DNA of 24,978 nt from a virus. The position numbers and the translations under genes are program-made. Each line of letters starts with the position of its first letter. The stretch's first letter is position 1. The stretch lies in IMG/VR virus record IMGVR_UViG_3300033978_000033, positions 1 to 24,978 of that record; one strand, 5' to 3'. Below, piece after piece: positions 1-24,948 of the stretch. The notes beneath the pieces were generated by a model. The model searched no databases. It was not told the DNA's origin and saw only the letters and a program-made list of their open reading frames with translations.

Positions 1-746
1 AAGCAAAAGATAAAGCATTACAAGACGAAATAGACGCTTTAAACGAACAATCTAAAATTCTTGCACAAGGTCGTGAAATAGCTAAAGCAAATGACGAAAA
101 AAGAATAGAAGATTTAAAAGCGTTTGGAGAAAAGAAAACAGAAGAATTAAATAATCAATTAGCACAACAAGAAGCTATAAGACAAAAAGAATTAGAAAAT
201 GAACAAATTCTTTCTGATGGTAAAAAAGCAATTCAAGAATCTTCATTTGCGGTTGTTGAAAGTGGTCTTGGTTTACTTAAAACTTTGTTTGAAAAAAATA
301 AAGGATTGCAAAAAGCCGCATTGATTGCTGAAAGTGCTATTGGTATTTCTAAAATTGTAATTAACACACAAGCCGCAAACGCTGCAGCAAGATTAAAATA
401 TGCTTTAATTCCCGGTGGTGCTGCTTTAGCTGCTGCTGAAATTACTTTAAATAGAATTGGTGCAGGTATTGGTATTGCTACAAATATAGCTGCTACTGCA
501 AAAGGTTTAAGTGCTTTAGGTGGTGGAAGTGCAAAGGGTGGAAGTTCAAGTGGTGGCGATACAGGTGGCGGAAGCGCTCCTACTATGGCTGCTCCAAGTT
601 TCAATGTTGTAGGCAATAGCGGAGTTAATCAAATTGCACAAACTTTAGGCGCTCAACAACCCGTTCAAGCGTATGTAGTTGCTAACAACGTAACAACTCA
701 ACAGGCGTTAGACAGAAACATCGTAAGAAACGCAAGTATAGGATAA
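1..746 (+). CDS. Tape measure protein, C-terminal part (5' truncated by window edge)
   Basis: The frame is open from base 3 to the TAA at 744-746, so the gene begins outside the window. The visible 247 residues start with a charged, Gln/Glu/Lys-rich helical stretch (about residues 1-80), followed by hydrophobic Ala/Ile-rich helices (about 95-165), a Gly/Ser-rich linker (about 166-190) and a polar tail ending in a VVANNVTTQQALDRNI-type segment. Long helical repeats, a membrane-like helical segment and a Gly-rich linker fit the tail-length ruler of a siphovirus. The right end of the window carries tail chaperone and tail-completion genes, which normally precede a tape measure gene, so the missing 5' part probably lies beyond that end of a permuted genome. 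A tail-associated helical protein other than the ruler cannot be excluded. Confidence 0.7.
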   Translation, partial: AKDKALQDEIDALNEQSKILAQGREIAKANDEKRIEDLKAFGEKKTEELNNQLAQQEAIRQKELENEQILSDGKKAIQESSFAVVESGLGLLKTLFEKNKGLQKAALIAESAIGISKIVINTQAANAAARLKYALIPGGAALAAAEITLNRIGAGIGIATNIAATAKGLSALGGGSAKGGSSSGGDTGGGSAPTMAAPSFNVVGNSGVNQIAQTLGAQQPVQAYVVANNVTTQQALDRNIVRNASIG

Positions 747-4125: not shown

Positions 4126-4653
4126 ATGGCTTGTGATTTATCAAGTGGAAGATTAGAAGTATGTAAAGATTCAGTAGGTGGCTTAAAAGCGGTTTATTTC
4201 GTTAATTACGGAGACGCAACAGGTTATACTTACGATGTTACAAATACCGACGTAATCGATGCAGTATTAGGAACTCCAACTGCTTACAAATACGATTTAA
4301 AAGGTGCTTCTACATTTACACAAAACGTAAATAGCTCAAGAGAAAACGGAACAACGTTTTACGAGCAAGTATTAGAGTTGACTTTCAAAAAGTTAACAGT
4401 TAAAGACCACAAAGAATTGAAATTAATGGCTTACGGGCGTCCACAAGTTATCGTAGAAGATAACAACGGAAATTTCTTCTATGCAGGTTTAGACCACGGA
4501 ATGGATGTTACAGGTGGTACTATCGTAACCGGTGGTGCTATGGGTGATTTAAGTGGTTACACATTAACGCTAACAGGGCAAGAACAAGTACCTGCTAACT
4601 TTATTGGTGACACACTTACTGCTGCAGGATTCACTGTAGTTGTTGGTTCTTAA
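4126..4653 (+). CDS. Major tail tube protein
   Basis: This 175-residue protein has the pattern of Bacteroidota siphovirus tail tube proteins: MACDLSSGRLEVCKDSVGG at the N-terminus, a central FYEQVLELTFKKLT strand-helix segment, and a conserved C-terminal half with LMAYGRPQVIVEDNNGNFF and TGGAMGDLSGYTLTLTGQE (about residues 105-155). It would polymerise into the tube of a flexible tail. It is a single gene bracketed by the capsid terminator upstream and its own terminator downstream, which suits a protein made in large amounts. The ATG follows the AT-rich leader ACTAATAAAATATATACAT. Confidence 0.78.
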   Translation: MACDLSSGRLEVCKDSVGGLKAVYFVNYGDATGYTYDVTNTDVIDAVLGTPTAYKYDLKGASTFTQNVNSSRENGTTFYEQVLELTFKKLTVKDHKELKLMAYGRPQVIVEDNNGNFFYAGLDHGMDVTGGTIVTGGAMGDLSGYTLTLTGQEQVPANFIGDTLTAAGFTVVVGS

Positions 4654-10562: not shown

Positions 10563-10946
10563 ATGAAAATAGTATATTTACTTATCTTATTAATTTTAAC
10601 GTCTTGTGGTGTAGTTAAAAAGAGTTCTGAAGAATCAGTTGTAAAGGATAATAGTACAACTGAAATTGATGCAACAAAATACTCTAATAGTTATACGCTT
10701 GAACCGGTAGATTTAGACAAACCTATTTTAATAGGAAAAGATACTATTTATAACACAAGGGTTATTTATAATAACACAAAAGAAATAGTTAAAGAAAAAC
10801 AAGCTAATAATATAGAAATTAAAGAAGAAAAAAAAACTAAAGAAGTAGATTACTCAGAAACTATAAAAATACTTGCTAATCGCTTAATAATAGTTTTAGT
10901 TATATTATTTGTTTTATCTGCAGTTTTAAAGAAATTTACTTTTTAA
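10563..10946 (+). CDS. Unimolecular spanin (lipoprotein with C-terminal membrane helix)
   Basis: The 127-residue protein begins with a lipoprotein signal (KIVYLLILLILTSC), with the lipobox ending at Cys15. A polar periplasmic stretch of about 85 residues rich in Asn, Thr and Lys follows, with a Lys/Glu-rich helix (NNIEIKEEKKTKEVDYSE). The protein ends with a membrane helix at about residues 107-122 (LIIVLVILFVLSAVL) and the basic KKFTF tail. An outer-membrane lipid anchor at one end and an inner-membrane helix at the other is the layout of u-spanins such as T1 gp11, which fuse inner and outer membranes at the last step of lysis. It follows the amidase by eleven bases. No separate Rz/Rz1 pair is seen. 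Confidence 0.72.
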   Translation: MKIVYLLILLILTSCGVVKKSSEESVVKDNSTTEIDATKYSNSYTLEPVDLDKPILIGKDTIYNTRVIYNNTKEIVKEKQANNIEIKEEKKTKEVDYSETIKILANRLIIVLVILFVLSAVLKKFTF

Positions 10947-11567: not shown

Positions 11568-11599
11568 AAGGAGTAGTTTAGCGACTACTCTTTTTTTTT
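11568..11599 (+). terminator. Intrinsic terminator after NinG
   Basis: GAGTAGT (11571-11577) pairs with ACTACTC (11584-11590) around a six-base loop. It is extended by GAA/TTC-like flanks that include a G-T pair, and is followed by nine T residues (11591-11599). Confidence 0.88.
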
Positions 11600-18709: not shown

Positions 18710-18730
18710 GCTAACACCTACTTTTTTTTT
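18704..18730 (+). terminator. Intrinsic terminator overlapping the DUF3310 stop codon
   Basis: AAGTAGG (18704-18710) pairs with CCTACTT (18717-18723) around a six-base loop, followed by a T run to 18730. The TAG stop codon (18707-18709) lies inside the left arm. Confidence 0.87.
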
Positions 18731-21070: not shown

Positions 21071-21364
21071 ATGGAAGATAGAAGAAAAAATAATGGTGGT
21101 CATAAATCTGCAGGACGTAAACCTAAAGTAGAAGAACAAAAAGTAAATACATTATTTGTAAATGCTTTGAAACAATTATATAATACAGAAGTAGACGACG
21201 AAGCTAAAATTACTTTTGTTAAAGATACTTTGTTAAGTTCGCAACGTGGACAGTTATTTGTAGCCGAGCATATATTTGGCAAACCAAAAGAAACAATCGA
21301 AACAACGCATAACATTAACGACTTCGATATAAAAGATATATTCAAAATTGATAAGTCTAAATAA
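21071..21364 (+). CDS. terS: Terminase small subunit (putative)
   Basis: The 97-residue protein starts with a basic, Gly-rich segment (RRKNNGGHKSAGRKPKVEEQ), typical of small terminase DNA-binding ends. Helices follow (NTLFVNALKQLYN, DEAKITFVKDTLLSSQRGQL) and then the segment FVAEHIFGKPKETIETTHNI. G-KPKE followed by an acidic tail is characteristic of small terminases in this phage group, where the tail contacts the large subunit. It overlaps the large terminase frame by 17 bases. It would recognise the packaging site and form a ring on DNA. Confidence 0.72.
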   Translation: MEDRRKNNGGHKSAGRKPKVEEQKVNTLFVNALKQLYNTEVDDEAKITFVKDTLLSSQRGQLFVAEHIFGKPKETIETTHNINDFDIKDIFKIDKSK

Positions 21365-22553
21365 CAAATATAATTTATTAGGTTCCGATAGTAGATACTT
21401 TGTAATTACAGGTGGAAGGGGAAGCGGTAAATCCTATTCCCTTAACTCCTTTTTATTATTGCTTACTTACGAAGTAGGACACGTTATATTGTTTACACGT
21501 TATACTTTAACTTCTGCAAACGTTTCTATTATTCCTGAATTTATAGACAAGATAGAATCAGCTGATTTAAGCAATGATTTTTATATTACTAAAGACGAAA
21601 TAATTAATTTAAAAACAGGTTCTAAAATACTCTTTAAAGGTATTAAGACAAGCAGCGGAACTCAAACTGCAAACTTGAAATCATTAGCCGGTGTTACAAC
21701 TTGGGTATTAGATGAAGCAGAAGAACTAACAGATGAAGAAACATTTGAAAAGATAGACTTTAGTATAAGAACAAAAGGAATACAAAACAGAGTTATATTA
21801 GTTTTGAATCCTGCAACAAAAGAACACTTTATATATAAGAAATTCTTTGAAGATAAAGGAATCCAATCAGGCAGCAATTTAATAAACGGAGATACTACAT
21901 ATATCCATACAACGTATTTAGATAATATAGAAAACCTTTCTGAATCTTTTATTAACCAAATAGAAAACATTAAGAATAGAAGACCCGAAAAGTATAAGCA
22001 TCAAATATTAGGTGGTTGGTTGGATAAAGCAGAAGGAGTTATATTTACAAATTGGGTAATAGGTGAATACAAACAAATAGGTAAATCTGTTTTTGGACAA
22101 GATTATGGATTTGCTGCGGATGCGTCAACTTTAGTTGAGTGCAATATAGATACAGCAAACAAAAGAATATACATAAATGAAAGATTTTATTTACACGGAC
22201 TAACTACTTCACAAATATATCATTTAAATAGACAACACGCTAACGATGCTTTAATAGTTGCTGATAGTGCAGAGCCAAGATTAATAAGTGAGTTAGCTAC
22301 ATTAGGTTTAAATATAGTTCCTGCCATTAAAGGACAAGGCAGCGTTACATACGGAATCAGTTTACTACAAGACTACGATTTAATAGTATCACCTGAATCA
22401 ATTAATTTAATTAAAGAATTGAATAACTATTGTTGGTTGGAAAAAAAGTCAAAAACACCACAAGATGCGCACAACCATATTATTGACCCATTGCGTTATG
22501 CAGTAAGCTACCAATTAGAAAACCCACACAAAGGAAACTATTATATCTACTAA
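21348..22553 (+). CDS. terL: Terminase large subunit (PBSX-like ATPase-nuclease)
   Basis: The 401-residue packaging motor has Walker A TGGRGSGKSY (Gly22-Ser29), Walker B WVLDEAEE with Asp122-Glu123, and the coupling segment VILVLNPATKEH (about 149-160). An RNase-H-like nuclease follows with Asp252 in FGQDYGFAAD, Asp306 in LIVADSAEP and Asp380 in NHIIDPLRYAVSY. Order and length agree with PBSX/phage terminases. The longest frame begins with TTG at 21348 (MISLNNKYNLLGS...), and no ATG lies between it and Walker A, so an unusual start codon is likely. The 17-base overlap with the small subunit gene favours coupling. It translocates DNA into the procapsid through the portal and cuts the concatemer. 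Confidence 0.88.
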   Translation: MISLNNKYNLLGSDSRYFVITGGRGSGKSYSLNSFLLLLTYEVGHVILFTRYTLTSANVSIIPEFIDKIESADLSNDFYITKDEIINLKTGSKILFKGIKTSSGTQTANLKSLAGVTTWVLDEAEELTDEETFEKIDFSIRTKGIQNRVILVLNPATKEHFIYKKFFEDKGIQSGSNLINGDTTYIHTTYLDNIENLSESFINQIENIKNRRPEKYKHQILGGWLDKAEGVIFTNWVIGEYKQIGKSVFGQDYGFAADASTLVECNIDTANKRIYINERFYLHGLTTSQIYHLNRQHANDALIVADSAEPRLISELATLGLNIVPAIKGQGSVTYGISLLQDYDLIVSPESINLIKELNNYCWLEKKSKTPQDAHNHIIDPLRYAVSYQLENPHKGNYYIY

Positions 22554-23220: not shown

Positions 23221-23892
23221 ATGAAAGTAGATATTAATGTACCTGAATCATTAAACGAAATTACTTTATATCAATACCAAAAGTTTGAGAAGTTAATACA
23301 AAACAATGAAGCAAGTCATTTTGTAAATCAAAAGACTATTGAAATATTTTGTGATATTGAACTTAAGGATGTAGCAAGAATAAAAGTAGCTGATACTGAT
23401 TCTTTGCTTGTGCATTTAAATACATTACTACAAACAAAACCTAAACTAACAAGAACATTTAAACTTGGTATTTACGAGTTTGGTTTTATTCCTAAAATAG
23501 AAGATATTACTTCAGGTGAATTTATAGATTTAGAAACATACCTTGGTGATACTGAAACTCTGCATAAAGCTATGGCAGTTCTTTTTAGACCAATTAAAAA
23601 TAAAGTTAAGGATTTATATATCATAGAAGATTACGAAGCCGCAGACAAGTACTCAGAGGTTTTAAAATATATGCCTTTAGATATTGCACTTGGTTCTATG
23701 CTTTTTTTTTGGACTTTGCTCAACGATTGCGGGATCGCTTTGAGTCATTATATACAGAACGAAGTGGAACAGTCGGAAGCAGCGAAGCAAGTTTTGGAAA
23801 AAAATGGGGTTGGTATCAATCAATTTACGCAGCAGCTCAGGGGGATATTCTCCGATTCAATTCAGTTACCAAACTACCCATCACAACTTTAA
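23221..23892 (+). CDS. Tail assembly chaperone, short (zero-frame) product
   Basis: The 223-residue zero-frame product reads VPESLNEITLYQYQKFEKLI, FVNQKTIEIFCDIELKDVAR and FIPKIEDITSGEFIDLETYL. It continues with the conserved helix HKAMAVLFRPIKNKVKDLY and DIALGSMLFFWTLLNDCG (about 156-173), and ends INQFTQQLRGIFSDS and a short tail. The arrangement (ubiquitin-like start, then helical bundle with FRP motif) matches Bacteroidota siphovirus chaperones analogous to lambda gpG. These coat the tape measure protein before tail tube polymerisation. A T9 run at 23702-23710 allows part of the ribosomes to shift into the -1 frame and make a longer product. Tail-completion genes follow directly. Confidence 0.72.
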   Translation: MKVDINVPESLNEITLYQYQKFEKLIQNNEASHFVNQKTIEIFCDIELKDVARIKVADTDSLLVHLNTLLQTKPKLTRTFKLGIYEFGFIPKIEDITSGEFIDLETYLGDTETLHKAMAVLFRPIKNKVKDLYIIEDYEAADKYSEVLKYMPLDIALGSMLFFWTLLNDCGIALSHYIQNEVEQSEAAKQVLEKNGVGINQFTQQLRGIFSDSIQLPNYPSQL

Positions 23893-23963
23893 TGACTTGG
23901 TTAATGTTTGAAAAGGAAAAAACAGAAATAGAAATTAAAAACATAAGAAAAAATGGTGTATAG
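23221..23963 (+). CDS. Tail assembly chaperone, long product made by -1 frameshift
   Basis: Reading the zero frame to the T run (codons TTT TTT at 23704-23709, residues 162-163) and then the -1 frame from 23709 gives a fusion of about 163 + 84 = 247 residues. The -1 part reads LDFAQRLRDRFESLY, then FGKKWGWYQSIYAAAQGDIL, RFNSVTKLPITTLMTWLMFE and KEKTEIEIKNIRKNGV, ending at TAG 23961-23963. The W-x-x-I-x-x-A-GD-I and LxxLxFEKEK pattern is the typical C-terminal domain of the long chaperone (gpGT analogue). The -1 frame has no ATG of its own in the overlap, which argues for frameshifting rather than an independent gene. Confidence 0.75.
23702..23744 (+). promoter_or_regulatory. -1 programmed ribosomal frameshift signal
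   Basis: The slippery tract is nine T residues (23702-23710), with the heptamer T TTT TTT in phase with the zero frame. An eight-base spacer (23711-23718) follows, then a hairpin: CTCAACGAT (23719-23727), loop TGCGGG, ATCG, a two-base bulge and TTGAG (23740-23744). Heptamer, spacer and stem are the standard three parts of such signals. Confidence 0.75.
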
Positions 23964-24378
23964 AATTATTAGAGAAATCAAAGAAGCGTTATTAGAAGAA
24001 CCTTTTGTAAACACAGTTACCGAAGGTGATATATTCGCAGTTGATTTAAACAAACAAACAATGTTTCCTTTGAGTCACATTATTATTAATCAAGCAACGC
24101 ATCAAGGCAATGTGTTATCGTTTAATATTACAATGTTGTTAATGGATGTTATCGATCAAAAAGAAGAAGTAGATAATAAGGTAGATATTTGGAATACTCA
24201 AATGTTAGTAGGCACACGAGTTTTAAATAGATTGAATCGTGGTGATTTGCGTAGTGACTTTTGGGAGTTAACAGGCAATCCTACATTTGAACCTTTTACC
24301 GAACGATTTGAAAACGATTTAGCGGGTTGGGCAGTTACGTTTGATGTATTAGTTAGAAATGATATTACTATTTGCTAA
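23953..24378 (+). CDS. Tail terminator / minor tail protein (putative)
   Basis: The 141-residue product starts MVYRIIREIKEALLEEPFVN, then TVTEGDIFAVDLNKQTMFPL, a beta-rich centre (NVLSFNITMLLMDVIDQKEE), LVGTRVLNRLNRGDL and a beta-rich end (FENDLAGWAVTFDVLVRND). An N-terminal helix and strands reading fplshi.i......g....f.i...v.D.id fit the small alpha/beta fold of tail terminators (lambda gpU type), which I recall in this position in Bacteroidota phages. Its start overlaps the frameshifted chaperone product by 11 bases. A neck protein is the alternative. Confidence 0.58.
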   Translation: MVYRIIREIKEALLEEPFVNTVTEGDIFAVDLNKQTMFPLSHIIINQATHQGNVLSFNITMLLMDVIDQKEEVDNKVDIWNTQMLVGTRVLNRLNRGDLRSDFWELTGNPTFEPFTERFENDLAGWAVTFDVLVRNDITIC

Positions 24379-24948
24379 ATGCAAAATAAAGAACAAACAA
24401 GAAAGTATCTAAACGACTTTGCTAAATATGTAATTCAGCAGAGTAGAAGTAATTTATCTAAAAGCGGAAAAATTTACGAAAAGAAATTATATAATTCGCT
24501 TGATGCTGAAGTAGAAGTAAGCGCTAATAGTTTTAGAATGATTTTCTTGATGGAAGATTACGGTGCGTTTGTTGACAAAGGTGTTAGAGGTAAAGACCCA
24601 AGTAAGGTATCTCCTAATGCAAAGATAAAAGGGCAACAGGCGCCACAATCAGAATATAGGTTTGGTAGTGGTAACTTCAGCGGTAAATGGGGTGACTTTA
24701 CAAACAAATTAGAAAAGTGGGTTAAGTCAAAGAATTTAAGATTAAGAGATTCAAAAGGTAGATTTAGTCAAGGAAATGTTAAAACTATTGCTCAAATAGT
24801 AGCACGTAATATTTATGCTCGTGGTATTAAACCAAGTTTATTTTTTACAAAACCATTTGAAAAAGCATTTGAACGTTTGCCTGATGAATTAGTTGAAGCC
24901 TATGGTTTAGATGTAGAACAATTTTTAAAATATACAATTACAAAATAA
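24379..24948 (+). CDS. HK97 gp10-like tail/neck completion protein
   Basis: The 189-residue product begins with a helical basic region (KYLNDFAKYVIQQSRSNLSK). The family segment LYNSLDAEVEVSANSFRMIF with LMEDYGAFVDKGVRGKDPSK (about 40-78) follows: a strand followed by E-Y-G-x-F-V-D-K-G is typical of gp10-like proteins that join head and tail. The remainder is basic (LEKWVKSKNLRLRDSKGRFS), then helices (AQIVARNIYARGIKPSLFFT, KPFEKAFERLPDELVEAYG). It directly follows the tail-terminator-like gene (TAA then ATG) and is linked to the next gene by TAATG. Confidence 0.68.
   Translation: MQNKEQTRKYLNDFAKYVIQQSRSNLSKSGKIYEKKLYNSLDAEVEVSANSFRMIFLMEDYGAFVDKGVRGKDPSKVSPNAKIKGQQAPQSEYRFGSGNFSGKWGDFTNKLEKWVKSKNLRLRDSKGRFSQGNVKTIAQIVARNIYARGIKPSLFFTKPFEKAFERLPDELVEAYGLDVEQFLKYTITK

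What the first reader, a model, noticed from the sequence alone, without database searches (positions are those of the whole stretch)
23702..23744. Programmed -1 frameshift with T9 slippery tract, 8-base spacer and hairpin in the tail chaperone
The zero frame contains T TTT TTT in phase. Eight bases later a bulged 9-bp hairpin begins. The -1 frame then stays open for 84 codons, encodes a chaperone-type C-terminal domain and ends beside the next start. This is the lambda G/GT strategy in a Bacteroidota phage, with an all-T slippery tract. The overlap region codes in two frames for about 180 bases and has locally higher G+C.
Basis: partly seen in the sequence, partly recalled or inferred. Interest (0 to 1): 0.72.

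Follow-up and report, generated by a model that had tools for sequence, protein, structure and literature searches.

The report
Length-locked T-run recoding in phage gene
A gene of a large group of viruses of Bacteroidota bacteria carries a run of nine or ten T bases, kept at that length even where its position moves, at which the cell's machinery must slip to make a second, longer protein; the pattern points to slipping by the RNA-copying enzyme rather than, as in the classic phage lambda case, by the ribosome.

Summary
The frameshift is real and conserved. T9 (23702-23710) lies in phase in the 0-frame ORF 23221-23892; the -1 frame is open to 23963. Every genuine relative read keeps both overlapping ORFs and a T run at the junction (287 unique genes: T9 239, T10 47, T8 1; 32 more loci found by N-terminus only, all T9 or longer). 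The isolate Nonlabens phage P12024S has it too, at 31% identity. Internal starts cannot explain it: 286/287 have no ATG ahead of the conserved -1 block. What is conserved is the run's length, not only a ribosomal heptamer: where the first T is lost, the run is extended 3' to 10 or 11 (one exception); where the eighth is lost, it is extended 5' to 10; synonymous Phe codons flip (TTC 23/23 versus TTT 27/28) so that the run stays at 9-10. That favours programmed RNA-polymerase slippage (as in Shigella mxiE, T9) over -1 ribosomal frameshifting, but this is inference; no RNA or protein data exist. Tail-chaperone identity is plausible but unproven: no Pfam or PDB match, unusual gene order. I found no report of this in the library searched.

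The parts
23221..23892 (+). 0-frame ORF (223 aa; place of lambda gpG in the scheme); residues 1-163 precede the slip, a 60-residue 0-frame tail follows
   Evidence: PHROG 32199 (unknown function) E 1.4e-18; AlphaFold2 mean pLDDT 83.5
23702..23710 (+). T9 slip run; length conserved (9-10, rarely 11, once 8) across the family
23703..23963 (+). -1 frame ORF (FFLDFAQRLRDRF...KKWGWYQSIYAAAQGD...), C-terminal part of the 247-aa fusion
   Evidence: no usable independent start
23711..23892 (+). Region read in two frames; nucleotide variability switches to -1-frame periodicity right after the run; G+C 42.9%
23718..23745 (+).
23953..24378 (+). Next gene (141 aa, PHROG 30964, unknown), overlapping the end of the -1 ORF
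24379..24948 (+). Following gene (189 aa, PHROG 29822, unknown), same orientation, directly downstream
21348..22553 (+). Terminase large subunit upstream (context)
   Evidence: Pfam Terminase_3 E 7.4e-31
3..746 (+). C-terminal part of the tape measure protein (context; in relatives it lies downstream of the slip gene)
   Evidence: PHROG tail length tape measure E 0.0011; relative L422 tape measure E 1.8e-8

Best explanation
A single phage late gene is decoded into two proteins by programmed slippage at a homopolymeric T run: a 223-aa 0-frame protein and a 247-aa fusion of its first 163 residues with the -1 frame. Shown by comparison: both frames, the junction and the run are kept by selection, and the -1 part cannot start on its own. 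Inferred: host RNA polymerase slips on the T9-T10 run (about the length of its RNA:DNA hybrid) and adds one U (U10; or loses two), so that some mRNAs carry the fusion in a continuous frame; mRNAs in the third phase end a few codons later. Inferred further: the two forms act like lambda gpG and gpGT, as tail assembly chaperones made in a fixed ratio.
For: Recoding: run in phase in 80/80, 77/77, 80/80 and 60/60 loci of independent searches and in every genuine gene of a scan anchored only on DNA downstream of the run. The conserved block begins at the run (FFLSFRER) with no ATG ahead of it in 286/287, no ATG/GTG/TTG in 207, and a -1 stop at most 3 codons upstream in 30. Nucleotide variability takes on -1 periodicity right after the run. 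Length, not heptamer: scans for loss of T8 or T1 that leave the rest of the run free: all T8-less genes have T10 extended 5'; T1-less genes have T10 extended 3', with one T8 exception (L478). At least 2 origins of each of the two shifted forms on a tree of 116 representatives. Third -1 codon with T1 and T8 present: TTA 172, TTG 46, TTC 23, TTT 0; with T1 absent: TTT 27, TTC 1, while Phe is 83% TTT elsewhere in the same ORFs. N-terminal-only query: 32/32 with T>=9, including T11 and a T9 shifted 3' in a 26%-identity relative. No conserved stimulator. Long T runs are depleted in other genes (T8 5 against 18.4 expected). The third frame closes within 4-12 codons in 287/287. Literature: T9 in mxiE and A9 in Thermus dnaX slip transcriptionally; hybrid 8-10 bp (PMC1088944; PMC6260861).
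Against: No transcript or protein data. Every run still contains a T TTT TTT, T TTT TTC or T TTT TTG heptamer, so ribosomes could slip there too. L478 has only T8. The independent relocations are few (about five), and substitutions may be held by amino-acid needs in either frame. A run of U is slippery for ribosomes and DNA polymerase as well, so avoidance elsewhere is not specific. Slippage by Bacteroidota polymerase at T9 has not been measured to my knowledge. Tail-chaperone function: no Pfam or PDB match, only weak BFVD matches to annotated chaperones (E 0.11 and 0.56), unusual gene order.
Confidence: 0.6

Rival explanations
1. Classical -1 programmed ribosomal frameshifting on the heptamer T TTT TTT (23703-23709), as in lambda G/GT, perhaps with group-specific stimulators.
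For: Heptamer in phase in nearly all genes; lambda-type tail chaperones use -1 frameshifting (PMC5009743); a hairpin 8 nt downstream exists in this sequence; avoidance of C at T8 would also be expected from a ribosome that slips better on UUU.
Against: Hairpin not conserved, no consensus fold; positions T1 and T10 lie outside the heptamer yet covary so as to hold the run at 9-10; runs relocate by 1-3 nt with length kept.
Confidence: 0.32
2. The -1 ORF is an ordinary overlapping gene with its own start (as annotated for gp39 of P12024S).
For: P12024S was annotated with two genes, gp38 and gp39; in the window a TTG at 23709 could start it.
Against: No ATG ahead of the conserved block in 286/287, no ATG/GTG/TTG in 207, -1 stop 0-3 codons upstream of the run in 30; conservation begins at the FF of the run; it would not explain the T run.
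Confidence: 0.03
3. Sequencing or assembly error, or a decayed gene with a one-base indel in a homopolymer.
For: Homopolymers are error-prone; the contig is metagenomic.
Against: Same run, phase and two ORFs in hundreds of independent contigs, an isolate phage at 31% identity and MAG contigs; no relative with the two frames joined was seen.
Confidence: 0.01
4. The recoded protein is not a tail chaperone but another virion or assembly factor (for example for the neck) that needs two forms. (About function; compatible with either slip mechanism.)
For: The gene follows the terminase and precedes two small genes of unknown function, five genes before the tape measure, with the tail-tube-like ORF elsewhere; no family match to known chaperones.
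Against: Same strand and upstream of the tape measure; two-form expression by a -1 shift is typical of tail chaperones; weak structural matches include annotated chaperones.
Confidence: 0.38

Closest known systems
Lambda gpG/gpGT tail assembly chaperone frameshift and its relatives (Xu, Hendrix and Duda 2004, cited in PMC3711429 and PMC5009743)
   Same: One late tail-region gene, short form plus -1-frame C-terminal extension, two overlapping ORFs, upstream of the tape measure
   Different: All-T run with conserved length; no sequence or fold match found; not adjacent to the tape measure; probably a transcriptional rather than ribosomal event
Shigella flexneri mxiE (T9) transcriptional slippage (PMC1088944, PMC6260861)
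   Same: T9 run at the overlap of two ORFs; one inserted U joins them into the longer product
   Different: Cellular transcription activator, unrelated protein; there slippage was shown by experiment, here it is inferred
IS elements using 9A/9T transcriptional slippage (PMC1088944)
   Same: Conserved long homopolymer at an ORF overlap, needed for the fused product
   Different: Transposases, with A runs; here a phage late gene
PHROG 32199 and PHROG 38404
   Same: 0-frame protein (E 1.4e-18) and, weakly, -1 products (best 8.5e-4) fall in these two separate families of unknown function
   Different: The library treats the halves as two proteins; the recoded link is not noted
Nonlabens phages P12024S and P12024L (Inhavirus), gp38 and gp39 of P12024S
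   Same: Same gene, T9 and -1 ORF in an isolate
   Different: Annotated as two hypothetical proteins

Membership tests
Programmed recoding (-1 fusion from two overlapping ORFs) | Both frames open and conserved, slip site invariant, no independent start | tested here: met
Programmed recoding (-1 fusion from two overlapping ORFs) | Fusion protein is made | not testable with these tools
   No proteome or ribosome profiling data
-1 programmed ribosomal frameshifting | In-phase X XXY YYZ heptamer | tested here: met
   T TTT TTT at 23703-23709; T TTT TTC or T TTT TTG in T8-less lineages
-1 programmed ribosomal frameshifting | Conserved downstream RNA structure (usual, not universal) | tested here: not met
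Programmed transcriptional slippage | Homopolymer of about 9 or more A/T at the junction, length under selection | tested here: met
   287 genes: 239 T9, 47 T10, 1 T8; compensating changes; one exception, L478
Programmed transcriptional slippage | mRNA heterogeneous in run length | not testable with these tools
   No RNA reads available
Tail assembly chaperone (gpG/gpGT type) | Two overlapping ORFs joined by a -1 shift, upstream of the tape measure gene | tested here: met
   (five genes upstream, not adjacent)
Tail assembly chaperone (gpG/gpGT type) | Homology or fold match to known tail chaperones | tested here: inconclusive
   No Pfam or PDB match; BFVD chaperone matches only at E 0.11 and 0.56
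Tail assembly chaperone (gpG/gpGT type) | Binds tape measure and tail tube protein, absent from virion | not testable with these tools
   Needs experiments

The most novel reading that the evidence does not exclude
A whole clade of Bacteroidota phages sets the ratio of two forms of a tail assembly chaperone by programmed RNA polymerase slippage at a length-locked T9-T10 run, in place of the ribosomal frameshift used by lambda-like phages.
Probability: 0.42. Interest if true: 0.72.

Novelty: new variant of a known kind. Interest (0 to 1): 0.6.

Why it matters
Tail chaperone recoding is the textbook case of conserved ribosomal frameshifting in phages. A large clade that keeps a homopolymer's length through repeated shifts of its position is a natural experiment separating slippage by polymerase from slippage by ribosome, and would extend programmed transcriptional slippage to phage late genes and to Bacteroidota. 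It also shows that phage genomes are annotated with this one gene split into two hypothetical proteins.

Tried and rejected
A longer two-stem structure (window 23724-23775) pairs in 84% of cells but shows no covariation beyond shuffles; dual coding can explain it. Internal start for the -1 ORF: rejected. Sequencing error: rejected. Pfam, PHROG, PDB and BFVD searches for a chaperone identity gave nothing firm. The fused protein was not folded because the structure tool takes proteins read in one frame; the two parts were folded apart (the -1 part only pLDDT 73). A pooled alignment was too diverse for the genome scan; a narrower one found four MAG contigs. In one search the looser anchor counted the 18 genes with the 5'-shifted T10 twice and one false upstream site (L388); the counts are the ones used. 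Literature searches for this combination found nothing; the library lacks most subscription journals.

Full report
What is there. The window is an IMG/VR virus record of 24,978 bases. T9 lies at 23702-23710, read CTT TTT TTT TGG in ORF 23221-23892 (223 aa). The -1 frame is open from the run to 23963 and ends over the start of the next gene at 23953. In the RNA, one extra U (or two lost) would join the frames into a 247-aa (246-aa) protein; one lost U gives a 173-aa protein.

Is it conserved? Searches with the 0-frame protein and the -1 product gave loci with the run in the same phase in 80/80 and 77/77. The nearest isolate, Nonlabens phage P12024S, matches at 31% and has the same T9 with FFLSFRERLRDLYPELYT in the -1 frame, annotated as two hypothetical genes. 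Searches from that phage reached very diverse relatives: again the run in all 80 and in 60/60 readable loci. A scan for a 16-base motif downstream of the run, which leaves the run free, found chance sites with 0-2 T and genuine genes always with T9. A query with only the N-terminal part of a divergent member gave 32/32 with T9 or longer. Three Bacteroidota MAG contigs and one contig labelled Euryarchaeota carry it too.

Selection in the -1 frame. In 55 close relatives mean column variability is 0.36 upstream, 0 in the run and 0.15 in the overlap, and the most variable codon position moves from position 3 of the 0 frame to position 3 of the -1 frame right after the run. In 286 of 287 unique genes no ATG precedes the end of the conserved block, in 207 no ATG, GTG or TTG, and in 30 a -1 stop lies at most three codons upstream of the run. 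The -1 part must therefore be reached through the run. The 0-frame tail (median 62 codons) is somewhat longer than most synonymous recodings of the -1 frame allow (median fraction 0.06), so the short form is probably also kept.

Not the hairpin. Among 47 distinct relatives it pairs in 66% of cells, the same as shuffles, and RNAalifold finds no consensus structure. A longer structure pairs in 84% without covariation. No conserved stimulator was found.

Length, not position. Two scans asked for exceptions: loss of T8 or loss of T1. All genuine genes without T8 (18 unique) have a T10 run extended 5' (cagT10C, caaT10G, cccT10C). Of genuine genes without T1, all but one have T10 extended 3' (L478 has T8). 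Among 287 unique genes the lengths are T9 239, T10 47, T8 1; the N-terminal query adds T10 genes with two T11. On a tree of 116 representatives the 5'-shifted form needs 2-3 changes and the 3'-shifted form 2 (some long branches). The third -1 codon shows the rule: with T1 and T8 present it is TTA 172, TTG 46, TTC 23 and never TTT; with T1 absent it is TTT 27 and TTC 1, although TTT is 83% of Phe codons in the rest of these ORFs. T1 and T10 are outside the ribosomal heptamer T2-T8. Their covariation holds the run at 9-10. The number of independent events is small, and sequences are related, so these counts are not probabilities.

How it most likely works. Bacterial RNA polymerase slips on homopolymers of about 9 A/T, near the length of its RNA:DNA hybrid; Thermus dnaX (A9), Shigella mxiE (T9) and IS elements use this (PMC1088944; PMC6260861). 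Here an added U would place the -1 part in frame in a share of mRNAs. The third phase ends within 4-12 codons in 287/287 genes, as would suit a mixed mRNA pool, though this may follow from dual coding. Long T runs are depleted in other genes of these contigs (T8 5 against 18.4 expected; T>=9 4 against 8.8), so the run is a marked exception; such depletion is not specific to the polymerase. I put transcriptional slippage at about 0.6 and ribosomal frameshifting at about 0.3; recoding by one or the other at about 0.97. Both may contribute.

What the product is. In a longer relative the order is terminase, this gene, two small genes, two large genes, tape measure. The AlphaFold model of the 0-frame protein is fairly confident (pLDDT 83.5) but has no PDB match; BFVD matches are uncharacterised phage proteins, with annotated chaperones only at E 0.11 and 0.56. 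No Pfam family fits the 43 members scanned in any consistent way. A tail chaperone in the manner of gpG/gpGT is the best guess (about 0.6), not a finding.

Known or new. Frameshifted tail chaperones and T9 transcriptional slippage are each known; I found no paper joining them or describing this family, within a library that lacks most subscription journals. Hence a new variant of a known kind.

Noticed in passing
L002:2495-3189 (JQ823122 23136-23830): P12024S gp38 and gp39 are one recoded gene annotated as two; P12024L carries the same arrangement; gp40 on the minus strand there is probably spurious.
   Followed up: partly
window 10828-10836: An A9 run inside ORF 10563-10946 (a lipoprotein-like ORF): another possible slip site in a coding region.
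   Followed up: no
L514:4001-4219: This phage gene sits in a contig filed as a Euryarchaeota MAG (PBGL02000003.1); probably a misbinned phage contig.
   Followed up: no
window 23953-24948 and 4126-4653: Unusual module order: chaperone-like gene after the terminase, five genes before the tape measure; a tail-tube-like ORF (4126-4653, PHROG 19091, unknown) lies with the capsid genes.
   Followed up: partly
L002, L478, L512 and others: In 219 of 287 genes the third (+1) frame meets a stop four codons after the start of the run (TTTATCATTTAG), kept also where the Arg codon AGG became Ser AGC (L478, L512).
   Followed up: partly
window 11591-11599 and 18722-18730: Two further T9 runs lie between ORFs.
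   Followed up: no
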